Positions 39,712 through 64,000 of a DNA stretch of 64,000 nt are shown piece after piece. The DNA is taken from NCBI GenBank assembly GCA_025330725.1, contig JAIWND010000016.1, forward strand, positions 1 through 64,000, written 5' to 3'. Numbering within the stretch: the stretch's first letter is position 1; each line of letters begins with the position of its first letter. The stretch comes from Chlamydoabsidia padenii (lineage: Eukaryota > Mucoromycota > Mucoromycetes > Mucorales > Cunninghamellaceae). The translations under genes and the position numbers were made by a program. The notes under the pieces were generated by a model that did no database searches, had not been told where the DNA came from, and saw only the letters and a list, made by a program, of their open reading frames with translations.

Positions 39712-40398
39712 CTAGGGGATACAAGGTGGGTTTAAATGATAAGTAGGGTGTCCAGTATCGCCTTGATGTAAAAGAGAAGGTAGTAGTAACCTAGGAATGT
39801 TCCGGCTAAACAAAGATGATTGTGGCTCGAAAGCGGAAGATGGCATGTCAACATGGTGTAATGGCGGTAATATCAATGGATGATCCCGGTGATTCATGTT
39901 TCCCGAACCATAATCCTGGGCTCCGATGGTACCTGCGTCTAGATGTGGCGGTACCTCTAATGTTGTTGTTGATGATGAAGAGCAAGTGGATAAAGATGAA
40001 GTAGGTGGTGAGAATACTAGAAGAGGAAGCGATGGATATCGTCGTTGTATTAAGAATTTCAATGTTTTTTCGATTTCCTGTAAACGTTGTTCAATAGCTC
40101 GTATGGTCTGTGTCATTGGTCTTCTTGAAGGCGATCGTAATCTTGTCCTTGTGTTCGATCCTGCTGTCGGGTTACTTGTTGTAGTTGTCGATTCGTCGGT
40201 ACGACATGGTTTGCTTGTGGGATGCCGCTGTTGTGGTGCAATTGTCGCCATTGTATACTGGCAATTAGAATAGGACTTTACACATGGAGCACATGGTTGT
40301 TCGTTATCACACTTGGTTTTTTTCCTACGACATTCCGAGCACGCCCTGACCACCTTTAATCGTTTCCGTCGTGATGGTTCATTAATCGACTTGTCCAT
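39712..40398 (-). CDS. Zn2Cys6 transcription factor, short
   Basis: Single exon, 228 aa. The Gal4-type binuclear zinc cluster is complete near the N-terminus: CSECRRKKTKCDNEQPCAPC, then a spacer and a sixth Cys in SYSNCQY, with a basic run RRKRLKVVR before it. A helical, probably coiled-coil segment follows (IRAIEQRLQEIEKTLKFLIQ), suggesting a dimer. The rest is Ser/Thr/Pro/His-rich. There is no fungal_trans middle-homology domain, so the protein is far shorter than classical members of the family (600-900 aa), but short Zn2Cys6 proteins are common in early-diverging fungi. The reading frame stops cleanly, and no downstream exon is evident. Confidence 0.8.
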   Translation of the reverse strand: MDKSINEPSRRKRLKVVRACSECRRKKTKCDNEQPCAPCVKSYSNCQYTMATIAPQQRHPTSKPCRTDESTTTTSNPTAGSNTRTRLRSPSRRPMTQTIRAIEQRLQEIEKTLKFLIQRRYPSLPLLVFSPPTSSLSTCSSSSTTTLEVPPHLDAGTIGAQDYGSGNMNHRDHPLILPPLHHVDMPSSAFEPQSSLFSRNIPRLLLPSLLHQGDTGHPTYHLNPPCIP

Positions 40399-46081: not shown

Positions 46082-46860
46082 CAATAAAACACATAAACAA
46101 GGGTCCAAGATGATATATATATATATATATTATATGTATCAATTAGTTTTATTATGAATCAAGTTTTAAAAGGTCAAATAACTTCTAATAAACTACTGTA
46201 GACGATGTACAGGGAATGGTGCAGCCTAGGGTGTCCGTTTCGTGTCGTGTGTCAATTCTAGGAGTGGTCTAAAGTAATGTTCCTACCAAGTAGATCAACT
46301 ATTAGTAAGTAAAAAAAAGTTGTATCAGATTAGTAACGTTGGGTCCTGTGTGATAAGGTCTTACTTGAGTTGGGTGGGTGGGTCTAGGTTGATTCGTATT
46401 CCTAGTTCACCGCCGGAGAAAATCCATTATATAGCCATACAGTAACATATCTACTACAAAAAAAAGAGTTGAAGCAGTTTATTTCTATTTTTACCAACAG
46501 ATTGAAGCAAAAGATGAGTGTCACAATTTCGTATATCAAAAGATGGGAAAAGAAGAGAGAGATAAGTGATCTGAATTTTTTTTTCTTTCTTTTAAGGCTC
46601 GAATTTTCGAATTCCGCTAAAAACAAAAACGAACCCCGATTGTGTGCGCTTTGTTTTTTTTTCCCTCCTTTTCAGCTCTTTTGATCATTCTCATTTTATC
46701 TTTTTTGATAAAGTTGCTTCCAAAGCTGGATTATCATGCAAAGAGAACCGAACAAGAAAAACTTTACATTATAAGTATCTACTCCTCCTCATATATTCAT
46801 TTTACATTGTATAATTGTTGTCAAACTAACACGTTTCTTCTTTTGCTGGGTTTTTACAAG
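46082..46860. other. intergenic, AAAP 3' end / TAF2 upstream and first exon
   Basis: TA-repeat near 46113-46132 and 3' flank of the transporter. A TTYGAA form of the promoter element is at 46606-46616. The probable first TAF2 exon ends at 46774 (ahead of GTATCT), but no ATG lies in the needed frame. Confidence 0.45.
46606..46616 (-). promoter_or_regulatory. CGG-N2-TTCGAA element (one-base variant)
   Basis: CGGAATTCGAA on the minus strand, about 245 bp before the first secure TAF2 exon. TTCGAA and TTTGAA are both forms of the TTYGAA core. Confidence 0.5.
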
Positions 46861-49800
46861 TCATGAACGGTTCGTACTTGATGTTGATCCCTGTAGGCGT
46901 TTTATAGAGGTAACGAATCCAAACTAACAATGACACAAAATAACAACCTATCATATACTAATGCATACTTGGAATTTACTTTTATTTAAACCGAAGGGCT
47001 CTGCGGAACTGACAATACAACCTCTTGCTCAATTATCCAATATACGAATTAATTCACGGCATTGTTGTAAGACTAATATACTGACTCTAATCACGAGAAA
47101 AAACTTGGTACTAATAGTTTTCAACCTATAGACATTACGAAAACCTATGTTAATGGTATCTCCGTGGACTTTGACTTGTCTGATCCTGTCTCCGAACTCA
47201 CTCTTGGCAACAATACAACAATCGCACATCATCAAGTATACAAAAGCAAATACTTGGCAGCGTTACGTGATGCGGATGACGGTGAATTATCTATCAGCAT
47301 ACCCGATCATTGCATGAAACAGGTATTTTAATAGAGGGAATCAACCAACTTTATAGATACTTACTGACGTCTCTTTTTACCTTTACTTTTAGATGACTGA
47401 ATCTGAAGCTCAACTTATCAGCAACCAAATCTTTTTGCAAAGCCATGCAGGTAAATAGCATTTGGAAAAACCATCTCAGCTAGCAGGGTATATATAAAGC
47501 AAAGGTACTTAATCTCTCTTTTTAACTGTTTTCGAAGATCTCAACGACGACCATAACGATAAAACGGCAAGCTCAAACGAACCCAATATACCATCCTATG
47601 CGCCAATTGTAATACGAATCGACTTTAAACTGGAGGATCCAAGAGCCGGTATAGTTTTTGTTGAACCGGACGAAGAAATCGCACCTTATGTAAGTGAATT
47701 GAACAAAATAGGGATCACGAACAAAAGTACTAAATGGATATTTATGAATTACATTCATAGCGGGCACATCATCTTTATACTGTCAACCAACCCTTACCTG
47801 GTGCGACACGGGCATGGCTTCCTTGTATCGATCGTATTGCGGAACGGTGTACTTGGGATATGGAATTCGTAGTGCCACGAAGAATGGGTGGTACTGTTAT
47901 GGACATGGATACTGATTCAACATTTGATGAAGATGCTACTGTTGTTGTCTGTAGTGGCGAAGTGGTGGAACAGGTAAAAGAACAAGAAAAACAGTGGGGA
48001 AAATAATAAATGAATGTACAAACTAATCATCTTTTTCATGTAGGTCATTCATCCAAAAGATCACTCCAAGAAAATTGTCCACTATAATCTCTCTGTCCCG
48101 ACTGCTGCTCCCTTTATTGGATTTGCTATTGGTCCTTTTGAAATGATAAAATTGTCACCTTCTCAACTACAAGAAGAGGTCCTCAATGCTGCTGAATTGG
48201 ATGAAAGTCAACAACAAAGTCTAATGGCCGAAATTAATATGATGTCAAATATCTATGCTTTTGCTTTACCTGGATTCCGTGACGAACTGAATATTAGTTG
48301 TACCTTCTTGATGCATGTAAGTATATAAAAGAAAAATCGACCACGAGTCATAAGACGCTTACTAATCTTGTTATCATTATCATTAGGCGATGCATTTTTA
48401 TGCTCAGGAATATGGCTCATATCCCTTCTCCGACTTTAAACTGGTCTTCATTGATGATGCTTGGTGCGACACTGCTTCAAGTGCATCTCTTGCCATCTGC
48501 AGGTAAGCCCAAACAATGTTTAATGGATGGAGGTATCATGGACGACTTAATAAATTGTTTATTTATTTAGCTCACGACTCTTACACGATGCAAGCATTAT
48601 CGATCAAACATATCATACTCGGCACGCATTAAGTCTAGCCCTTGCAAGGCAATGGTTTGGTGTGCACATTATACAGAAAACGTGGATGGACACTTGGTTG
48701 ATTGCTGGACTTGCCAACTTGATGGGGTCTCTATTCATAAAACGACATTTGGGTAACAATGAATATCGATTACGATTGAAGAAGGTAAGATAATACAGAT
48801 AATGATGTAGGTAAAGCATTGATCATTGAACAATGTTTTGTATTTTGTAGGACATGGAACTATGCTGCTCTTTGGATGTCAATAGGGCGCCTTTATACAA
48901 CCCTGCTCTACCATCGCCATTAGACCCAGATGATTTAAGCTTCTTGGAACTCAAGGCTCCTTTGGTGTTGTATATCCTGGACCGACGTATGTGCAAAGCT
49001 GGCTCCACTCTTGGTCTCTCTCGTGTTATACCCAAGATCCTCGTCTCTGCGATGAGTGGTGAACTGGCTCAAAATGCAATCAGCACTCACTACTTTATGC
49101 GACTATGCCGAAAAGTTAGTGGATTCGATACCAAGACCTTTGCCGACCAATGGATTTACAAAAGTGGTTGCCCCAAATTCAATTTTGCCTTCAACTTTAA
49201 TCGCAAGAAAATGGTGGTGGAATTCTTTATGAAGCAAGAAAATACAAACTCATTTATCTCCAGCACACAGGATGGCGAACGTGTACCTTTGACAGACGGC
49301 GGAATTGTCAACTATCAAGAGTTTATGACTCCTTTGTTTACTGGTAGTCTTACAGTACGGATTCATGAAGCCGATGGGACACCTTACGAACATATCTTGG
49401 ATATCCATTCAGCAGAACAAAAGTACGAAGTCCAATTCAACACGAAATATAAGCGGATTCGACGAAACACCAAACGATTCAGGGCGAAACAAGCAGCAGC
49501 GGCAGCGGCAGTGGCAGAAGAAGAGCAAGAAAACGAAGAAGGTGCGGAACCAGGAACAACAACTATGCTGGGTATTATTCCTAGTTTGGGATTGGGTATG
49601 CCTGTATTTGAAGATCCTGTCAAGAAACAAGAATGGCAGATCTACGAATGGGGACAAGGTGGCGAAGATACCAGTGGGGCAGCAAGTGCTATGTTTGATT
49701 GGATTCGACTCGATGCTGAATTTGAATGGCTTACAAGTATTGAATTCCAACAACCTGATTATATGTGGGCTGCTCAACTTACCAAGGACAGAGATGTGGT

Positions 49801-50439
49801 TGCTCAACATGATGTAAGTCACCGAAAAGGGGGTGGAGTATATGCATATGTCAATGAAACTGATCCTCAACCTTTTTATTTATTTTATTTATGATCTCTA
49901 GGCTGTCACTGCCTTACAACATATGCCATCACCACAAACTTCCACCAGTTTACTTCGGGCTCTTCTTGATCAAAAATGTTTTTATAAGATTCGAATGGAA
50001 TGTGCATATGCATTGGCTTCGGTAAGAAGAAATAAACTTGCTAATGGATGAATCGCTGTTGATAATTATACTAAACTCACTCTCTCTCTTTCTCTCTTTG
50101 TTTTCTTTTAATAGTGTGCAAGTCCGGCAGTGGATTGGATTGGGCTTCTTCAACTAGGCAAGATGTTCCGAAAACGCTACTGCTTCCCTATCAGCTCTCC
50201 AGACGATGGCGACGATGGTATACCTTTGGCCCTGGCCATTCCTAAACCCAACAACTTTAGCAACATCCCAGACTACTTTATACAAAAGGCGGTGGTGATC
50301 GCATTCTCTCAGATTCGTGATAACCGAGGACTGGCTCCGGAAAAAGTACGCAAACTCTTATTGGATCTCCTGAAATACAATGACAACATCGGAAATGAAG
50401 TAAGTCTATAAATATATAATAATGAAATGCATGATTTAA

Positions 50440-50488
<49 letters not shown>

Positions 50489-53400
50489 ATTGATAGTTCT
50501 CGGATTGCTATTATATTGCTACTATGATATCTGCTCTTGGTGATTCTTTGATACCGTCTCCTAATGCTCAAGATGCGCTTACTGTTGACACTACTGAAGG
50601 GAAAGAATTGATCAGCGCTGCTCTATCTGAAATCGAGCGCTTCCGTACCTTGGATTATGTCATTCCTACTTATCACAACATTGTCACAGTATCATGCTTA
50701 AAGGTAAAACAGTAAAATCAAAATACTCAGGAATCTAACTTTATATTGTGGAAACGTTTAGACTATTACAAAGCTGATGATGAATAGTTTGATGGATATC
50801 AACCTGGCTACCTTTATGCCTTACACAAGGTAAAAATGAAGAAAAGAATAATGATTATATGATAGAATACGATGAATCTTTATTGATCTTTACTTTTTGG
50901 TTTTTAGATATGGAAACTACCTTGAAGTCCGACTCACTGCCTTTGATAGTCTCTTTGTCTTGGCTGGTCTTCTTAACAGCGAATTGACCAATTACTTCTT
51001 GACCGTGATCAAGGAGGATCCATGCGCTTATGTCTCTCACTATGTCTCTCGTGCAATGCTGACTTGGCTTGGCTTGGCTCTCAGGGACAAGACTGATACT
51101 ATCCAAACAAAAGCTTTTGAAGAATTCGCTGAAGAAGAAGGCAAGGTGGTCATCGAAGACGAAAAACGAAGATTACAGAAAACGGTACAACAAGAATTCC
51201 AGGCCAGCGTGGAATCCTTACGCAAACGGTTTGGGAACAATACTGAATTACAAGATAATCTATGGGACCTCCTCAAGTAAGTCACCGTAACAAAAAAAAA
51301 AAAAAAAAAAGAGAGACCTTGTAATAAGGGAACTAATCTCTCACTCCTTTTTTTTCATTAGCTCTCGGGAAAATGTCACTATTGATCACTCTATCCGGAA
51401 ATACCTCTTGCAGTTTTGTGAATACATGTACAAGCCTATTGATGTTGGATTAAAGGTGACCATCCGTGTGCCCGCGTTACAGGTAATACTAGATTTACTT
51501 TTTGAAATTTTTTTATGCATGACTCAACTTGATAATTTATCTCTTCTACAGCCTCAAGAAGCTTCAGAAGACATATCTGAGCCAGCAACACCTACTCAAC
51601 CTATTTTACGGATCAACAAACCAAAGCAACCCATAAAAGATAAGAAGGATACTGAAGGTAAGTTTATAATGCTATATATCTAAGCTTATTTTTACTGTGG
51701 CTAACATGCTTACACTTCATTTTATTAGGGAAATCAATCAAAATACTATCCTCTATTCGATCATTTGTATCCGACAACAGTGAAGGGGCACCTGAACAAG
51801 CTGGTACTTCATCTACCATATCACCTCCAGCCTCGCCAATATCACAACCAATCAGTAGTCATTCGGAAACAAAGCTCACTACAACTGTCAAGCCTCCAAA
51901 ACCACCAAAGGTCAGCATCAAGAAATCATCCAAAATGCCATCCTCAGAATCGAAAAAAATTAGGCGGATATACAACAAACTACAAAAACATCGTGCTGCT
52001 GCTGTATTCCTCCAAGAAGTTGATGAAGAAATGGATGGTGCTCCTGGATATTATGATATTATCAAGAACCCAATGGATCTCGGAAAAATCAAGAAAAAGG
52101 TGGATGAAAAGGTGTATACTTCCTTCTCTCAATTTGAAGCCGATGTCCGCCTGATGCTCAGCAACTGCTATATCTTCAATCTACCTGGATCTCTTGCTTA
52201 CGACCAAGGACAAATACTGGAAAATGTGCTGGAAAAGGAGCTTGCCAAGGGACGAGAAGCTGATGAAAACCAAAACATGACTATTGTGGAAAGCCGTGAA
52301 CCGTCACCAATAGGAAATACAACCACGGTTCTCCCAACAAAACCAGTGGACACCTCACACTTTGATGCTTCACCTATTGCACAATCTGTGGAGACTTCAC
52401 AATTAACTTCACCATCACGACCATCACAATCACTAACTCCATCTCAACCTCTACAACAATCACTGCCAATACATCCACCACAAAAACTACATCGATCGGA
52501 ACCTCCACCATCTTCTCAAACCACACAGACACAACCGACAGCAACACAATTACAACCTAAACATTCTGTACAGTCATTCTCACAGCCTCCACCATCACCA
52601 CAGCGTCTACAAACTTCCAAGTCTCAAGCATCTACATTGGTACAGTCTCCCAAACACCAGCGACCACATGGATCAGAGCCTCCACCAACCACAGTACGTC
52701 CTCAACCACCTCCTACTGTAAACCAAGAACCAACTGTCCATCATCGACCAGCACCAACATCGATGCCACCAACATCAGCTCCTACCTCTGTCCCTCGCAC
52801 TCGGACCATCAAGGATATATGCACCTCTATCCTCACCAAGACAATGGAATCTCGCCATGCCTTTGAATTCTTGCGACCTGTGGACCCCATCAGCCAAGGC
52901 ATACCTCAATATATGGAAATTATCAAGCGACCAATGGACCTGGGAACAGTCAAGACCAAATTGGCAAATGATCAGTACATGTCGGTACAACAATTTGATG
53001 ATGATATCCGGTTAATGCTCTCCAACTGCTACAAATTCAACCCACCAAACACTTATGTCTACAACGAAGCAAAGCAGCTGGAACAAGTATACAACAAGGA
53101 ATATGACGCCAACTTTGGTACTAATCGACTCACTCAATCATCCAGTGCAACAAAATATCCTACAATAAGTCCTCAAGTCACTCTACAGAGTGGTCATCCA
53201 GTTGCACAGGCACCCACCACCTCTCTTGCCACAGTACAATCTATGAACCATTCGTCGTCAAATCCACAGAAACCAAATCAACCAACTCCTCCGGCTATGA
53301 CACCCATCAAGAAGGAAAAGCAAAGGAAATCATCACTCAAGACTGTCTCCTCTCTGCCTGTGTCTGCTTCGCCTGGTGGTTCCTCTGTCAACTCTGCAAC

Positions 53401-53645
53401 AACTTCAAAGCCCAGTGCTATCCAACCTCTGATGGACTCTACAAACAAGGAAAAATGTCGTCGCATACTATCTCAATTGTGGAATCGACCTGAATCACTT
53501 GCTTTCCATTATCCGGTAAGCTGCTTACAAAAATGAAAAATTAAAAAGGCTAAAGGTAATGGATGGCTAATCTATTCTATTTACTATCTATAGCTGGATG
53601 TTGTTGCTCTCAACATCCCTAGTTACTTGGACATTATAAAGGTAA

Positions 53646-53679
<34 letters not shown>

Positions 53680-55333
53680 AAAGGGAAAGACCGAGACCTA
53701 ACATCTTTATATCTTGTAGCGACCCATGGACCTTACGACAGTGCGTGAAAACTTGGAAAATGGTACCATCAAGACGGTTTGGGATTTTGAACGGGACATT
53801 CGACAAATCTTTTGGAACTGCTTCCGCTTCAATGACTCGATGTCCGCCATTAGCCAACAAGGTCAAGCTCTCTTATCCTTCTTCAATCGACTTTGGTATA
53901 ACGACTTTGCTGAACCCGACTGTCTTAGTGGTGATGACGAACGTGCTGCCAAGAATCTTATGGCTGCCTTGATGAAACAAGAATATGCGGCGCTGTTTAC
54001 CGAACCTGTGGATACCTACGCGATACCAGAGTACAAGGAACGTATCAAATCACCAATGGATCTTCGAACAATGTCTGAAAAGCTGGCTTCTGGGCGATAT
54101 ACGTCTTTAAAACAGGTGGATGCGGATCTTCGCCTTATGTTTGACAACTGCTTCAAATTTAACAGCCCCAGGACTATTGCTTATGATCAAGGAAAACGGC
54201 TGGAAAGGTACTATCTCAGCAACGGCGGAAAGGAAGTGAGATCACGTATCAAGGAACAGCAAAGGCAAACCACCCCTTCCACAAGCGATACTACACACAA
54301 AAGCTCACCGACAATGGCATCGACATCCAAGCCTGCGTCGAAACCGGTGTCACCATTTCACTCACGACATAATTTACCATCTCCTGTCAGAACAGCAACA
54401 GCAACAGCTCTACCCGAAAAGCAAGCTTTACCACCAGCCTCATCACCATTTATTCAGAAGCCACGGTCGACAACAACTCCTCCGTTCAAGGCATCTGCGG
54501 TTACACCTCCTGTGCGACCAGCATCAACAGGTACTTCTCCTACTATAGCGGTTTCAACCACACCAGGTACAATACACCCTCCAGTATCAACTCCATCGCC
54601 AAGTACCTCTACACACACAAAACTTTTGCCTGGTCTTCATACGAGGTTGGACGCTCTTCTAGTCAAGCTGAAGAAAAACAAGAATGCAGCTCCTTTTCTG
54701 GTCCCGGTAAGTATACAAAGGTAGTCAATTGGCTACTAAACAGTTATGTTAATCATTCTCCCATCTTCTACTATAGGTGGATCCTATTGCCCTGAACATT
54801 CCTCATTATTCTACAATCGTACCTAACCCAATGGACTTGGGCACCATGTAAGTGATACTTTTTTATAATTGTTTGAAGGTAAAATATAATCCTCAGGGCC
54901 TCCTTTTTTAACTCTTTTTCTTTCTTTCTTTCTTTTTTTTTTTTTTATAGGACGAAAAAACTAAGGTCTGGTGGATACAAGTTTGTTAAGGAATTCGAGG
55001 CCGATTTCCGATTGATTGTGACCAATTGTATCCTATTCAATAGTCCTGACCATGTGATATCTGGCCTGGCGAAATCTCTGGAAACCATATTCAATAAAGA
55101 AATACAGCCTATCAAGGTAAAAGAAGAACAGTTAATGGCGGGAATCAAGACAACTGGATCAGCAAAGACATCGGGAAAGAAATCAAGCTCCTCGACATCT
55201 ACTATTAAACCCGATGTGAAGAGGTACAAGCCGGTGCTGGACAAACTCAAAACAAAGGAGTACTATGGTGCTTTCGCCATTCCTGTGGATCCTGTGGCTC
55301 TTCAAATTCCAACTTACTATGATTATGTCAAGG

Positions 55334-55369
<36 letters not shown>

Positions 55370-55968
55370 TGATCTTGATTATTAAACACAATTACTTTCA
55401 TTCACAGCATCCGATGGACTTCGGTACAATACAAAAGAAATTGGACAAGTATCCTAATGCCGAGACCCTTCTGCATGATATCAAGCAGGTGTTTGTAAAC
55501 TGCTATCTCTTCAATCTGGCGGACGATATTGTGGCTCAATGGGGAAGACTTTTACAACAGGATTTCACCAACCTTTGCAACGAAAAGGGGCTAAAGACAG
55601 TGCACATCGACATGGATAAAGAACGTCAGGTAGCTGAATCTGAAGGAGCCGTCCTACAAGATCTTACGTACTATGACCCATCAACATATGCCAACTTGAA
55701 TTCAGCGACTCCATTTGCCGCCCCAGCAACATACACCGCACCATTACTATCACATCCTTTACCTCAAGCGTCAATGACTATATCGCCATCCAACGACAAT
55801 AAACGGGCATATGAAGATACTTTCTATGGCTATCAGGTAAATCTTTCATTCCCCGCATGTATGGCAATGAACTAACTTTTTTTTTCTTCTTCAATCTAAT
55901 AGCATGGTGATCTCAAGAAACCAAAAATCGAACCTTCCTCTTCCGCCTCTAACGGGAATTATATGTAG
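46861..55968 (+). CDS. TAF2: TFIID subunit TAF2 fused to six bromodomains
   Basis: At least 2,447 residues in 24 secure exons; junctions were checked one by one and keep a single frame to TAG at 55966-55968. The first 1,150 or so residues are TAF2: HERFVLDVDPCRRFIEGSAE at the start, an M1-aminopeptidase-like fold without the HExxH zinc site (LALARQWFGVHIIQKTW where the family has its zinc helix), then the HEAT-like half (SDCYYIATMISALGDS, FRTLDYVIPTYHNIVTVSCL). A Pro/Ser linker leads into six bromodomains at 51950-52240, 52800-53106, 53440-53903, 53937-54230, 54632-55110 and 55223-55590. Each has a PMDL/PMDF motif and an N-C-x-x-[FL]-[FY]-N type end, so all six keep the acetyl-lysine-binding Asn. 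The start codon is unresolved; the chain given begins mid-exon. Confidence 0.92.
50444..50486 (+). repeat. (TG)n microsatellite in a TAF2 intron
   Basis: About 21 TG units between the donor at 50400 and the acceptor at 50496. Confidence 0.95.
53647..53676 (+). repeat. A30 homopolymer in a TAF2 intron
   Basis: About 30 consecutive A on the sense strand in the intron at 53642-53719, unusual because most long runs in introns here are T on the sense strand. Confidence 0.9.
55336..55367 (+). repeat. (TA)n microsatellite in a TAF2 intron
   Basis: About 16 TA units directly after the donor at 55333 in the intron that splits the sixth bromodomain. Confidence 0.9.
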
Positions 55969-56701: not shown

Positions 56702-58083
56702 ATGTTTGGACAAGATGAAAATGAAGATACAACACTATTTGAACTGGTGGACGTACATGGTCGGCTAACTTTGGATCAGGTCTATGGGAACGGACTACAC
56801 GCTCTGAAAAGACTTACCATATGCAACTTGACAGATCGACGAATAGTGGTGCGGATGCGATCAAACCTACGTAATCAGATCACCTTCCAGACAGAAAACG
56901 AAAACTTGGTGGGATGGGATGTTGGTGACAATACAACGAACACAGTCGCTTGGTCGCAGCAGCAATTGAATCAACAACAGCAAGAAGACACATCTGTTTG
57001 CAACAACCATAGACAGCCTTGGAATGAACTTTTCAACATTGTTAATCATATCGACGAATTGATCCTCAACCCTCGAGAAACAAGACCATTAATCCTTGGC
57101 TTCTTACCTGACGCAAGAGAAGATGACGACGACACCAGCACAAGCGGCGGTATCTTCACCCAGGACAACTCTGAAACAGACACCTTCAACTGGTTTAATG
57201 TAACTGGCAGCTTATTCTTCTTTGGTTACGTGGATGCAGTATCAAACATGGCCGACTATCAACAATCTATCAAATTCCGGGCTAGTGTCTGTCAATCAAC
57301 ATTATGGACGGATGTAACTGAGACTGGAATCAACTTTGACGATTGTGTCATGGGGAAAACTTATCATCGTGACTTTACGGTAAAGAACAAATCTGACATT
57401 GACCTATACTGGAAACTGAATACTGTGGACATGTTAAATGGTTGGTTGGACTTTGCTGATGCTGATACTGGTGCAACATTTATGGATCAACAATATGGGC
57501 CCATTGGCGGATGCTCTTCTCGTAGGATTCGTATCACTTTTACACCAAAGGACGTGGGGGAATTCAACTATGACTTGCAATTAGAAAATCTCAATGATGC
57601 CCGAAATGTGGTGCAATGCAAGATACATGCTATTGTGCGATCGGTAGCTCACAAGGAATCTTTGGTGGTGGCTAGTGGCAATTTGATCGATTTTGGCGAT
57701 TGTATCTCTGGTCAATGGACGGTACAACAAATGGTGCTAAATAACATCAGTGAAACTCCTGTGGAAGTCCGGTTTTTGCCTGAAGGTGGGGATGTTGTCT
57801 TTGATATAAAATCAAGTCTGGATACGCCAAATGAACTTGCTCCTGGCTCTGAACAACGATCTAATTTGGTGACTCCTCCTACAACAACACTTGCCAGCAA
57901 CAGCGACTTTTCGGCAACTGATAGCGACTTCTCTCGGTCTTCTTCGCCAATCTCAATGGAATCATCAAGTGTTTGGGGTGGTGTCCGCATTCACACACCG
58001 TCGCAGGCTGCAACCTCAGTACGATCTACTGGTGATTTAGACGTCAAACCACAAGCAACATCATGTAAGTCATGGCTCCTCCT

Positions 58084-58137
<54 letters not shown>

Positions 58138-61100
58138 AGTCTTGACTATACCAAACTAATTTTTCTTCTCTTCTTCTTTGAAATAGTACCAGTTGAAAAC
58201 TACTCTAGGATTGAAGATCTACTACTCAAGCCTGGAAAAGAAAGGACGGTGCAAGTCTCCTATCGACCTCAAAAGGATGCCAATCTGATGGATTTCAATG
58301 CTGGGCAACTTATACGGCGTAACTTCAGAATTGTCCTTGAATATGGTACCTACCGAAGCACTGAACCCAAAGAACGGAAATCTGTACAATGTCGGGCAAG
58401 AACATGTACTTCTTTTGTGGAGGTGATTCCCAAGGAAATCAACTTTGGTGATACTGATGTTGGCACTCTCAAATCAATACCCATCAACATCTTCAACAGA
58501 TCCGATATTTTGGCGCGGGTGGAACTGGAATTCACGTCAAAGGTGCTGAACTGCCTTCGGGGGGAAATCACTATACAACCACGAAGCTACGTCGAACTCA
58601 AGTTGGATCTATACCCACGCAAGGTGAATCCTGAATATCGAAAACAAATTACACTGGTGAACTATCTCAACAATGACAACGACCAAATTATTGAAGTACA
58701 AAGCACCAACATTGATAAAAATAGAGTTACCTTCCACTCTCTGTTTTATCGTATTCTCACTGCCACCGGTGCTAATTACTTGGATTTTGGATCGATCGCA
58801 CTCAATTCACCATCATTGCGCACATTCACAGTGGAGAACATTCGGAACAAGCCTTTGACTTTGGATATCACAACATCAATCCCTCAAGACCTGGTGATAT
58901 ATGTCAAGAAAAAGCGAACCAACAAAAGCACCACAAGTCCTCAAATCGGCAAAGGCAATACACCATCTGTACCGTCTGCACCAAATTCCATTGCAATCAA
59001 CAATCATGATTCTAGCATCAAGAAGAAGGATCGTCGAATGCATCTACACCGTGTGCTTTTGGATCGAGACAACAGTAGCATCAACAATGGCCCCATTAAT
59101 AACAGCAATGGCACCGATGGTAATAGAGGTGATTTGTCTCTCGAACATCAGCAGCAACAAAAGCGTATTCATCGTGCCGACCGGGCTACTTACTCCTCCA
59201 CAGCATATCTGGATTTGGCGACGGCACCTGCACAGCACAAGAATACTAGGTAAGAATGAAAAAAAAAATAATCCAACAACTTACACTGGACAAAATGCAA
59301 TATATAATGGTAACCCTTTTATTTATGATTATTCTTATAGCAAACGGCGGTTACTGCGATCTATCAATAAGAAGGAACTCAATGATCTGCGGGATTTGGC
59401 TGGTGTGAAGTCTCAACAAGTTAAAACTGAAAAGAAACGGTCAAATGGTCCTGGTAAAAATCTATTGGTTAACAATCATGGTGCTGCTACAAACTCCAAC
59501 AACAATGGTATCATCAATGGGCACACACGGGATAATCAACACAAACGTAAATCTCATCATCGACATATGGGGATCACTGCTGCTCGTTACAAATCTCGGA
59601 AGAACTTGGATTGGTCTGATATTGCTGGACAAGCTCGTGTGCCTTTTGAAGATCTCCTATCAGTGCTCGAACATGGCTCGAAGGCTCCTCCTCCACTATT
59701 TCCCAAGCAGGCTGCCGAAGAACAATTTGTCCGACATCAGTTGGCTTGGCGACGTGAATTGGAACGACTGATCGAAAAAGGTGATTTGGTCCAAACATCA
59801 CTTGTGCACGTGGATCCCGAAGGCGAAGAGGAAGTGGTGATCGTCTTTACTCCTAATGGTGAAACCAAGCCTCATGTCAAAAGTGCTCCCAAGAAACAGG
59901 ATGGTCGGATCTTCTTACGATTGGTGGATTTTGATCGGGATATCGAACAGACGGAATTTGAAAACTTGCTCGATTTGGATCAATGCAACATACCTCTACG
60001 TGAAGTCATTGTCCGTGCACAACTTTGTCGATCTGTGATGGATTTGGGTCAGAAGAATATCAACTTTGGGATGGTGGAACGGAACGAACGGCACGCCAAA
60101 TCTATAGTGTTACACAACCGGAGTGAAACGCCATTGCTCTACGCCATTCGGAAATCTGGTTCCATTGCCTCTGGTGACATTGATCTCGGTGCTGGACGCT
60201 ATGGTGTAGTGCGGTCTTTTGGTAAACGGGAAATCGAATTCACCTTTGAACCAACTTTGCCTGGTAGCTTCATGGAAAAATTGACAGTGGAAAATATTCG
60301 GGATCGTCATAATGATCAAGTTTTATCTCTCAAGGCTATCGTGCGTAAACCTTCAACATTCTTCATCCAGTCTCTGGAGTTGGCATTTGGACCTTGTCTT
60401 GTGGATCATATGTGTACTCGAACCGAAGCTATTGTTGTCACAAACACCAACAAGCAATCAAGAATGTTTGAAGTGCGTGTGGACCCGAACGAAGCAATCT
60501 TTGGATGTTACTTTGGTGAATTCGACTTTGTGGTGGACGACGACGAATCAAAAAAGACATTATCCAAAGAAGCTGAAGAAGAAATCGAAAACCTAGAACA
60601 AAAGCTCAAGATTGCTAGACGGAAAAATCAACCAGACAAGATCAACAAATACATCAAGAAATTAGCCAAACTCAAGGATAATGGTGCTGCTATTCCAAGC
60701 AGTCCGACCGTGGATGCAACTTCAACATCGACTGATACAACAAATGGTGATGGGGGCAACAAGGATATGACGGCAATGATATTCAAGAAGACCTCTGAAA
60801 GCGTGGTGTTTCCCCTGGATCCTCATGCAACCAAGACAATTACTGTTTACCTCAAGGCTGCTTTACGACCATTAAAACAAGGTGAATCTTATCAAGACAT
60901 AGATATGCTTCCTTTACATGTCAGGGGTCGCATCATGGTCCATGAATACAAGAACACAGATGTCTGCAAAAGCATCATGTACACGGCGTTGATATGCAAG
61001 AACCAGGCGGATTATAATCGAGAACTGGCTTTGGAAGGTCAACAGGCGGCAACAATATCTCCAGTGGTATCTCCTACAAGCTCTCCATCTTCACCTCCAT

Positions 61101-64000
61101 CGTCTATGGTACCTCCTATACCTGAAGTGGCGGTGGCAGCTGAACCTGAAGAATCACTAGTACTGGAACGAACAAGCTTTGATGGTGGCAAGGCCGAAAT
61201 AGATCAGCAATCTACTTTCTATGTACGTGTTACCAATCAATCGGACAAGGAATTACCGTACAGCTTTGTGGTGGATGACAATAATGAGAAGAACTTCTTC
61301 ATCTGTCCAACAACAACAACACCTTTGGTACCATCTGAAACTCGGAAAATCTTGTTTGATATACTGCCAACGACTGTGGGTAAACAACATCATACACTAT
61401 CAATACGAAACGACATTACCGGGACAATGCAAACATTCACCCTTCAGGTCCTGGTCCACCGCAAACAATACCTGTCATTTCCATCTCTCTCTGAAGATAC
61501 AAATGGTGAATTGGATCTTGGCTTCTCCTATGTGGATCCTGGAAACAAGTACTCACAGGTGACGCCTCTATTGGTCAAAAACATAACCGATGAAGATGTC
61601 TATATCACTTGCCAAAGTAATCTGTCTCACCAAGTGCTTATATTTATGGATGAAACCGGAAAACGTGGTTTGGTGGATATGATGCCTTTCAAGCGTGGCA
61701 ACTTACTGACTGTGTGGGTGGCAGTACAACCAAATTTATTGACTGGCTATCTGGGCAACTCTGAAGATGAATGCCGAGAACTGGTGGGTGGCATTAAATT
61801 CTCTATCTACACCAAAGATGATGGCGGACGGGACACTGGCGATGTACTAACTGAAGAAGAAAAAAAACTGGATGCAGCAACGAATCTGATGTGGACGCAG
61901 ACGGTCAAGTTTACATCGATTATTGGCCAGTCTCATCTTCAAGTATCTCACCAGGTCATCAACTTGGGCTACACCGATCTTTTGCACGAAGAATTCTATG
62001 GGGCATTCACCATTCAAAATAAGTCTGGACAGTTACCTTTAGATTATGAAGTCGAATGTACAAGTGGGAACATTGTCTTGGACAGGCGTGGTGGAACCTT
62101 GAATGGTTGGAAAGATGGTACTGGTGCTTTGAAACTACGCGACTCGGTTGGCGATGACAGCCATGGGGATGATGATGATGAAAACTATGGTGATGCGTTG
62201 ACTACTTCTCTGGCTCAAATTACATTCCGAATATACTCTTATCGACATGGTTTACTGACGGAACGATTACTGGTCACCAATATGCATAACAGCAAAGAAG
62301 TGTTTGAAATAGAAGTCAGACTCTTTGTAGATTGTGGAAAAATGGATCTTTTATCGATACCCTCTCGACAGACTCCTCTCGACGACACTTATCACTCGAA
62401 TCACCGTGAAGCTTACCCTCTTCGTACATTGAAATGGGAAAGTATATATATATGTCCTGTAGACGAAATCGACAATGATGATGCTGGCACTAGCAGGGAC
62501 AACAACAATAATAATAACAGCAACAATAATAATAATAACAATAATAACAATAACAGCAACGAAGAATGTCATGACAAGGATGATGGGAAGGATGAAGCTA
62601 CACCAAAACTCAAAATGATACAGCTACCACCTCAAGATGAACAACGACTTTATATCCGGGAAATAGAAGTGGCGAATACCTCTGGACAACCTATGATGCT
62701 GACAGCGGGAAGTGATATTGATGTGAAGGCACAATGGGTGGTACAGGATCAAGCAAAGAAACAAATCATGGAATCGACAACGGTGGTATTGGCATCCCCT
62801 TTTACACAATGTAGTGATCAAGTAGCTCTTCAACCTGGTCAACGTTTGCGGATACAACTATATTGTCCATCAGTACACAAACTCTCGGCGGAATCAAGAA
62901 ACCTTGCATTACAGGGACGTAGCGGCTCACTCGAAGGTATGCTGGTGCTATATGATTCTAGACAACAAGTAGAAGTTTTGGCGATGGAATTACAAGCTCT
63001 CTTTTGTGTATCTCTGGCTGCTTTGTCTGTGGAACGAATAGATCTAGGGAAAATCGGCCATATCAATTCCTGGAAACCTACAAAATTCCAATTCTCTGTG
63101 CGTAATTTGTCTGATGTCCCTGTATCATATACCCTGCAAGCATCACCCTTCCTTAACTTTGTGCCTTTGGACAAAAATGGTGTGGCTCTTATAAATTGGG
63201 ACAAAAACTTTTACGTTCCGGCAAAGAAGTCGCAAACTGTCGAAGGTACCTTGGAAACTCTGGCCATGGTTGATCAAATATCCGGACACCGGCGGATCGA
63301 TATACAAATTATAAATCAACGTAACCCCAGCAATTACATGATGCTTCGACTCAAGGCTCTCATGACATCTTTTGAATTGTTCTTTGATGGACTGACGAAC
63401 GGCGAACTGGTTTTACCGACTCTACAGCACCCTATCCCTGATCCGAATGTAACTTGTGACAACTGGTTTGTGATCCGCAACACAACTGACGATGACATAC
63501 GATTTGAAATTGGTGCGGATATATCTTCTGATCTCGTGGACTATATTAGGCTGGATGTTTTATCAAGATATTCTAATTCTCCTCTAAAAGGTGGTATCAC
63601 GGTTAGCGCTCAAGGGAAAATGGAGGTGCGTATACGGGCAGCACCAAATGAAGCAACACGACTCCCACTTAATCGACCTGATTTGATGGATGCTACAGTG
63701 GGTGTTATTCTGGCAAATCTCTGGGTGACTACAAGACCAAAGGACGAAGACCAAACTGTCCGGGAGGTGATTCCCGTGCGAAGTTACTTGATGGACACTC
63801 CAACATTCTCTCTCAGCGAACGGCGTTTGGACTTCAAGTTGATGACATATTATCGCGAAGACCAAGAACAACAACAACAACAACAACGGGATGATGGCAA
63901 TAGAAATGAACACCATCGCCAATTGGAACGGCTGAACCGAACATTGAAGATAGATGATGATCAATTGTCAACCTACTCAACACCTGCGATATGCGTCCCT
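56702..64000 (+). CDS. giant ASH/MSP-like repeat protein (partial, runs off the window)
   Basis: 2,362 codons visible in three exons, 56702-58064, 58187-59249 and 59341 to the window end, with no stop. The chain is a string of immunoglobulin-like beta-sandwich units of the ASPM-SPD2-Hydin/major-sperm-protein type. The recurring signature is [IL]-[ND]-[FL]-G followed 15-20 residues later by N-x-[ST]. I count nine, for example INFDDCVMGKTYHRDF, IDFGDCISGQWTVQQM, INFGDTDVGTLKSIP, LDFGSIALNSPSLRTF, INFGMVERNERHAKSI, INLGYTDLLHEEFYGAF and IDLGKIGHINSWKPTKF. Inserts include a coiled coil (KEAEEEIENLEQKLKIARR), Ser/Pro-rich loops and an Asn run near 62500-62560. In animals such repeats occur in centrosome and cilium proteins and TMEM131-type proteins. 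No membrane segment or signal is visible so far. Function unknown. Confidence 0.8.
58086..58130 (+). repeat. T45 homopolymer in ASH-protein intron 1
   Basis: Uninterrupted run of about 45 T beginning 21 bases after the donor at 58065 in the 122-bp intron. Confidence 0.9.

What the first reader, a model, noticed from the sequence alone, without database searches (positions are those of the whole stretch)
46861..55968. TAF2 carrying six bromodomains in one protein
What is seen: 24 exons with matching phases run without a stop from a clear TAF2 body into six bromodomains, each keeping the acetyl-lysine Asn and the PMDL/PMDF block. Known: human and budding-yeast TAF2 have no bromodomain; human TFIID reads acetyl-lysine through two bromodomains of TAF1, yeast through the separate protein Bdf1. 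Inference: in this lineage acetyl-histone reading by TFIID has moved to TAF2 and been expanded to six readers, perhaps with loss from TAF1 or of Bdf1. I do not know whether such a fusion has been described.
Basis: partly seen in the sequence, partly recalled or inferred. Interest (0 to 1): 0.88.

Follow-up and report, generated by a model that had tools for sequence, protein, structure and literature searches.

The report
Six bromodomains on a fungal TAF2
In this mould the transcription-start protein TAF2 carries six modules of a kind that recognise acetylated proteins such as histones, and versions with two or more turn up in several groups of fungi, so the well-studied yeasts, whose TAF2 has none, may be the odd ones out.

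Summary
Confirmed, and intact. One 25-exon gene (46736-55968 +) encodes a 2460-aa TAF2 ending in six bromodomains, each significant alone (E 1.3e-14 or better), with pocket Asn and Tyr kept. The source is very probably Chlamydoabsidia padenii.

All 120 listed long homologues carry two or more bromodomains: three in the listed basidiomycetes, up to six in Mucorales and Endogone. Unfused TAF2 is seen in Ascomycota. TAF1 here lacks bromodomains, but Bdf1 is not lost: two BET loci. The TAF2 bromodomains score closer to BET than to TAF1 ones, so a move from TAF1 is not supported.

Best reading: a multivalent, BET-like acetyl-lysine reader built into TFIID. Four fused proteins have both, so an ancestor with both is possible. 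Binding, TFIID membership and transcripts are untested. I found one passing hint in print (Cryptococcus).

The parts
46736..55968 (+). whole coding span of TAF2 with six bromodomains, 25 exons, 2460 aa, stop TAG 55966-55968
46736..46770 (+). probable first coding exon
   Evidence: product matches Absidia repens and Halteromyces N-termini; inferred
46771..46857 (+). probable AT-AC intron
   Evidence: inferred
48311..48772 (+). M1-aminopeptidase-like stretch (introns inside), below Pfam cut-off
49163..49756 (+). TAF2 Ig-like domain PF25316
49757..51091 (+). TAF2 TPR-like domain PF25577 (introns inside)
51092..51943 (+). junction linker, with introns 51277-51361, 51483-51551 and 51658-51728
   Evidence: 78% identical to Absidia repens
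51944..52234 (+). bromodomain B1
   Evidence: E 3.5e-23; coordinates
52805..53095 (+). bromodomain B2
   Evidence: E 7.4e-23; coordinates
53441..53887 (+). bromodomain B3 (introns 53516-53593 and 53642-53719 inside)
   Evidence: E 3.4e-21; coordinates
53933..54217 (+). bromodomain B4, in tight tandem with B3
   Evidence: E 5.2e-23; AlphaFold2 pLDDT 95; coordinates
54635..55095 (+). bromodomain B5 (introns 54707-54776 and 54848-54950 inside)
   Evidence: E 1.6e-21; coordinates
55210..55569 (+). bromodomain B6 (intron 55333-55407 inside)
   Evidence: E 1.3e-14; coordinates

Best explanation
The gene encodes the only TAF2 found in this genome, with six BET-like bromodomains joined to its C-terminus through long Pro/Ser/Thr-rich linkers. 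Shown by sequence: one open spliced frame, a TAF2 body, six pockets with the acetyl-lysine Asn and Tyr, bromodomains better conserved than most of the linkers, and bromodomain-bearing TAF2 in several fungal groups. Inferred: the protein sits in TFIID as TAF2 does elsewhere, with its body at promoter DNA, and the tethered bromodomains bind acetylated tails, most likely of the +1 nucleosome, by avidity, which holds TFIID at acetylated promoters. In one polypeptide it would do what Bdf1 does as a separate protein in budding yeast and the TAF1 double bromodomain does in animals. The simplest history is one fusion before the groups that have it split, changes in copy number afterwards, and loss in Ascomycota.
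For: Open 24-exon frame and a first exon matching relatives. Domain hits. 120 of 120 listed homologues (of 177 found, candidates limited to about 1346-4282 aa) carry two or more bromodomains. Among 439 bromodomains over 60 bits in 121 TAF2 proteins the Tyr is kept in 439, the Asn in 417, the shelf Phe in 438. Against Absidia repens the bromodomains are 80-89% identical and the linkers L12, L23, L45 and the C-tail 43-55%, but link1 is 78% and L56 79%; against Parasitella 47-60% against 27-30%, link1 53%, C-tail 7%. B1, B2, B3, B4 and B6 form supported groups by position that include Mucorales and Endogone; B5 does so for Mucorales only. First bromodomains of the different groups score high against one another. 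Highest scores outside TAF2 go to the genome's own Bdf1-like and C45 bromodomains and to BRD4, above TAF1. B4 models as a bromodomain. PF25577 matches only this locus in the genome.
Against: No transcript or protein was seen. The deposited model of this gene ends inside B5, so an isoform with four bromodomains is possible. Comparison of the B4 model does not single out BET: the first VIA-align rows are BRWD1, BAZ2, CECR2, PCAF and GCN5 bromodomains within a tie. The first bromodomain lacks the Asn in 22 of 72 three-bromodomain proteins, so not every domain need read acetyl-lysine. The bromodomain tree rests on 97 columns with 26 open forks, and several first domains are unplaced. Profile scores of some first domains are high against second and third ones too, for example Bas2 to Zoo1 110 bits, so one fusion is favoured but not shown. 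The BET comparison used a small reference set, with cut human pieces. Spizellomyces and Geosiphon models are unfused.
Confidence: 0.7

Rival explanations
1. The bromodomains are real parts of the protein but act on acetylated non-histone proteins, or mainly as scaffold, rather than reading promoter nucleosomes.
For: No binding data; the first bromodomain has lost the Asn in 22 of 72 three-bromodomain proteins; gatekeeper positions differ between the six.
Against: Asn, Tyr and shelf Phe are kept in all six here and in each position of the 15 six-bromodomain proteins.
Confidence: 0.17
2. The main product is shorter: retention of intron 54707-54776 ends the protein inside B5, leaving four bromodomains, as in the deposited model.
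For: P0004 ends this way; 29 of 121 proteins show four bromodomains over 60 bits, some of them partial models.
Against: B5 and B6 are 81% and 89% identical to Absidia repens and keep the pocket residues in all 15 six-bromodomain proteins.
Confidence: 0.08
3. Two neighbouring genes, a plain TAF2 and a polybromodomain protein, have been joined on paper.
For: No transcript seen; the linker is long.
Against: Clean junction introns with matching phases, 97% coverage and 78% identity of the junction linker in Absidia repens, and the same order in 120 of 120 listed homologues.
Confidence: 0.03
4. The TAF1 double bromodomain was transferred to TAF2 as B3-B4.
For: B3 and B4 are a tight tandem; Mortierella relatives, which keep a TAF1 bromodomain, appear to lack B3-B4 on TAF2.
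Against: B3 and B4 profiles score 35-56 bits against TAF1 bromodomains and 66-94 against BRD4, the Bdf1-like and the C45 domains; the fungal TAF1 proteins seen here have one bromodomain, not two.
Confidence: 0.02

Closest known systems
Human and Komagataella TAF2 (TFIID subunit 2)
   Same: the TAF2 body aligns
   Different: one matched stretch each, in the TAF2 part only, when B1 is in the query
Fungal TAF2 proteins with bromodomains in public annotation
   Same: same architecture; Absidia repens is 93% identical over the body and has six bromodomains
   Different: three bromodomains in the listed basidiomycetes and two to six elsewhere
Bdf1 / BET proteins
   Same: highest bromodomain scores outside TAF2 go to these and to the C45 locus; [quoted passage not shown]
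   Different: separate proteins with an ET domain, absent here; two such loci are in the same genome
TAF1 double bromodomain of animals
   Same: bromodomains in a TFIID subunit
   Different: another subunit and lower profile scores; no bromodomain at either TAF1 of this genome
Budding yeast Taf2 tail binding Taf14 (PMC9177701 and PMC7442819, passages seen)
   Same: the TAF2 C-terminus brings an acyl-lysine reader to TFIID
   Different: a short peptide that binds a separate YEATS protein, not covalent bromodomains
Polybromo-1
   Same: six bromodomains in one protein (six stretches listed)
   Different: no TAF2 body; SWI/SNF subunit (recalled)

Membership tests
TAF2 (TFIID subunit 2) | TAF2 Ig-like (PF25316) and TPR-like (PF25577) domains | tested here: met
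   E 7.8e-30 and 2.8e-63
TAF2 (TFIID subunit 2) | M1-aminopeptidase-like region without the zinc HEXXH motif | tested here: met
   M1 match 26.5 bits against cut-off 27.7; LALARQWFG stands where M1 enzymes have HELAHQWFG (motif recalled, read by eye)
TAF2 (TFIID subunit 2) | assembly into TFIID | not testable with these tools
   needs purification
Bromodomain | Pfam profile over cut-off, six times | tested here: met
   54.3 to 81.8 bits against 21.7
Bromodomain | acetyl-lysine Asn and ZA-loop Tyr | tested here: met
   six of six
Bromodomain | bromodomain fold | tested here: met
Bromodomain | acetyl-lysine binding | not testable with these tools
   no assay
BET (Bdf1/BRD4) | ET domain after two bromodomains | tested here: not met
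   no PF17035 among the five families found in the protein
TAF1 | DUF3591 core | tested here: not met
   no PF12157 in the protein; the TAF1 genes lie elsewhere
Polybromo | BAH and HMG domains beside the bromodomains (feature recalled) | tested here: not met
   neither is among the five families found

The most novel reading that the evidence does not exclude
The C-terminus of TAF2 is the fungal TFIID's slot for acyl-lysine readers. An early fungal TAF2 carried both BET-like bromodomains and, at its very end, a basic-hydrophobic peptide that docks a Taf14-type YEATS reader. Descendants kept one or the other: Mucorales and Basidiomycota the bromodomains (up to six), Ascomycota the peptide, while some Mortierella relatives, Jimgerdemannia and Calcarisporiella still have both. 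The TFIID of textbook yeasts would then be a derived, half-stripped form.
Probability: 0.35. Interest if true: 0.78.

Novelty: new variant of a known kind. Interest (0 to 1): 0.6.

Why it matters
TFIID is the first general factor at RNA polymerase II promoters, and how it reads acetylated chromatin is usually told from two cases: TAF1 bromodomains in animals, and separate Bdf1 plus Taf14 in budding yeast. A TAF2 with covalent bromodomains in several fungal groups would make the yeast arrangement look derived. It would also offer a system in which the link between promoter acetylation and TFIID can be tested by point changes in one subunit.

Tried and rejected
Transfer of the TAF1 double bromodomain to TAF2: suggested by the pattern in Mortierella relatives, not supported by profile scores. 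Loss of Bdf1: not supported. A second TAF2 in this genome: no other match to PF25577. My first version of the novel reading, that Ascomycota gained the Taf14-like peptide in exchange for lost bromodomains, was weakened on re-checking: four fused proteins (P0034 Jimgerdemannia, P0035 Calcarisporiella, P0041 Podila, P0044 Mortierella claussenii) end in the peptide too, so I changed it to an ancestor with both and lowered its probability from 0.40 to 0.35. AlphaFold2 of B4 alone gave pLDDT 59 and was not used; with 16 relatives it gave 95. The structure comparison did not single out BET; TAF1 and BET are not in its 50 rows, which excludes nothing. Foldseek lists Candida glabrata Bdf1 BD2 and human BRD2 and BRD4 BD2 among rows of similar E-value. 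YEATS matches exist on six contigs, and an ET match without bromodomain on C14; whether one is Taf14 was not settled.

Searches for a published description: (listings). They led to one passing hint, PMC12844337 (passages): a Cryptococcus neoformans hit that aligned only to the Spt7 bromodomain region is the TAF2 orthologue. The survey most likely to discuss this, Antonova et al. 2019, is not held; I have not read it.

Limits of the counts. One search took candidates of about 1346-4282 aa and listed 120 of 177; one search took about 405-1290 aa and listed 120 of 713. The length ranges favour fused and unfused proteins by design, so they show presence, not proportions. Of the 120, two carry a whole bromodomain, two a piece, and many are fragments. 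The peptide count (58 of 71) used the proteins over 1100 aa among P0147-P0240; the nine over 1100 aa among P0121-P0146 were left out (one of nine has the peptide, a Coemansia partial model; two are fused and several partial). The 71 include unnamed sources, Geosiphon and Cryptococcus depauperatus, and many Aspergillus and Penicillium, so they are not independent. The 13 misses include five Lipomyces, Geosiphon, C. depauperatus and two unnamed. The stricter published consensus gives 47 of 71, control 16 of 3550, fused 3 of 120. Spizellomyces and Geosiphon are single gene models that may be cut short.
Full report
WHAT IS THERE. A small gene finder gave the same gene, but it was trained on this gene. 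The edge at 46861 is not the start: joining ATG 46736-46770 across an AT-AC intron, 46771-46857, gives a protein of 2460 aa whose first 22 residues are identical to those annotated in Absidia repens and Halteromyces. This junction is inferred.

The contig holding the window is 767,659 bases long, as is the contig of P0004 from Chlamydoabsidia padenii, whose protein is 100% identical over 1927 residues. That model starts at residue 207 of the 2447-aa model and reads past the donor at 54707 to a stop inside B5. The two ends of the gene therefore rest on relatives.

CONSERVATION. Against Absidia repens the six bromodomains are 80-89% identical; L12, L23, L45 and the C-tail are 43-55%, but the junction linker is 78% and the short B5-B6 linker 79%. 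Against Parasitella the bromodomains are 47-60%, four linkers 27-30%, the junction linker 53% and the C-tail 7%. The bromodomains, the last two included, thus look constrained.

DISTRIBUTION. Of 177 homologues found with the TAF2 body among candidates of about 1346-4282 aa, 120 were listed, and all 120 carry at least two bromodomains by a profile built here. Counting domains over 60 bits in these and the window protein, 73 proteins have three, 29 four, 15 six, two five and two two. The listed basidiomycetes have three; the six-domain proteins are Mucorales and Endogone. A second search, among candidates of about 405-1290 aa, found unfused TAF2 in Ascomycota (Schizosaccharomyces, Pneumocystis, Saitoella, Lipomyces, Aspergillus and others), Geosiphon and Spizellomyces. 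Human and Komagataella TAF2 match in one stretch each, in the TAF2 part, when B1 is in the query. In a tree of 30 TAF2 bodies the seven Ascomycota lie on one side of a branch; fused and unfused labels need four changes.

HISTORY OF THE DOMAINS. In a tree of 138 bromodomains, B1, B2, B3, B4 and B6 form groups by position that include Mucorales and Endogone; Endogone's fifth is only weakly tied to B5. Mortierella's second and fourth fall with B2 and B6, its third near B5 with weak support and by profile score, its first unplaced in the tree; Umbelopsis's second to fourth fall with B2 to B4, its first unplaced. Six may thus be ancestral to these groups with later losses, an inference on 97 columns. 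First bromodomains of Mucorales, Mortierella, Umbelopsis, Dimargaris relatives and Basidiomycota score high against one another, which favours one fusion, although some also score high against second or third ones.

TAF1 AND BDF1. The genome has two TAF1 loci, on C2 and on C8 about 30 kb beyond this gene, with no bromodomain near either. Of 120 TAF1 proteins listed (of 1092), 22 carry a bromodomain: 21 of the 22 from Mortierella and its relatives, and Geosiphon. Those relatives thus have bromodomains on both subunits. Two loci have two bromodomains followed by an ET domain. TAF2 bromodomain profiles score higher on these, on the C45 locus and on BRD4 than on TAF1 bromodomains, with a small reference set and cut human pieces.

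MECHANISM. [quoted passage not shown] Six bromodomains at the end of the same subunit would sit in the same place. I propose binding of acetylated tails near the start site by avidity. None of this was measured.

A SECOND PATTERN. [quoted passage not shown] A similar peptide lies in the last 40 residues of 58 of 71 unfused TAF2 proteins over 1100 aa, against 23 of 3550 control stretches and 4 of 120 fused proteins. None of the 31 proteins P0001-P0031 and none of the 74 proteins P0047-P0120 has it in the last 45 residues. The four fused proteins with it are from Jimgerdemannia, Calcarisporiella, Podila and Mortierella claussenii, at the very end. A further 31 of 120 fused proteins have the pattern between body and first bromodomain. 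The bold reading is an ancestor with both readers and loss of one or the other. The rows are related, many gene models are cut short, and no Taf14 partner was checked.

KNOWN OR NEW. The architecture is visible in public annotation. In the papers I could search I found one passing hint, for Cryptococcus (PMC12844337, passages), and no description; the main survey of TFIID evolution was not available. I call it a new variant of a known kind, with a real chance that specialists have noted it.

Noticed in passing
window 46771-46857: The first intron looks like a rare AT-AC intron (ATAAGT...TTTTAC); several mucoralean models of the same protein start after it, as if gene callers could not cross it.
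   Followed up: partly
window 54707; protein P0004: The deposited C. padenii model of this gene is cut at both ends and ends by reading past a donor site.
   Followed up: yes
G000 C8:85605-87010 and C2:153786-155356 (L030, L029): Two TAF1 loci, one on the same contig about 30 kb downstream of TAF2; Halteromyces, two Cunninghamella species, Gongronella and Dichotomocladium also show two TAF1 proteins each.
   Followed up: partly
P0290-P0313, P0316: TAF1 of Mortierella relatives (21 of 22) and Geosiphon has a single bromodomain, while the other 97 listed TAF1 proteins show none.
   Followed up: yes
P0147-P0240; P0034, P0035, P0041, P0044: Unfused TAF2, and four fused ones, end in a basic-hydrophobic peptide like the Taf14-binding motif.
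   Followed up: partly
first bromodomain of P0053, P0070, P0074, P0113 and others: Smut relatives, Malassezia, Exobasidium and Pisolithus/Scleroderma have Thr or Ser in place of the pocket Asn in the first TAF2 bromodomain, 22 of 72 three-domain proteins.
   Followed up: no
window 56702-63894: Long predicted neighbouring gene; its first 473 residues match Cep192 and HYDIN/CFA65 Ig-like domains, although these fungi are thought to lack cilia (recalled).
   Followed up: no
window 39712-40398 (-): Zn(2)-Cys(6) transcription factor in a single exon.
   Followed up: no
G000 C45:551648-552480: A third double-bromodomain locus with no ET match on its contig.
   Followed up: no
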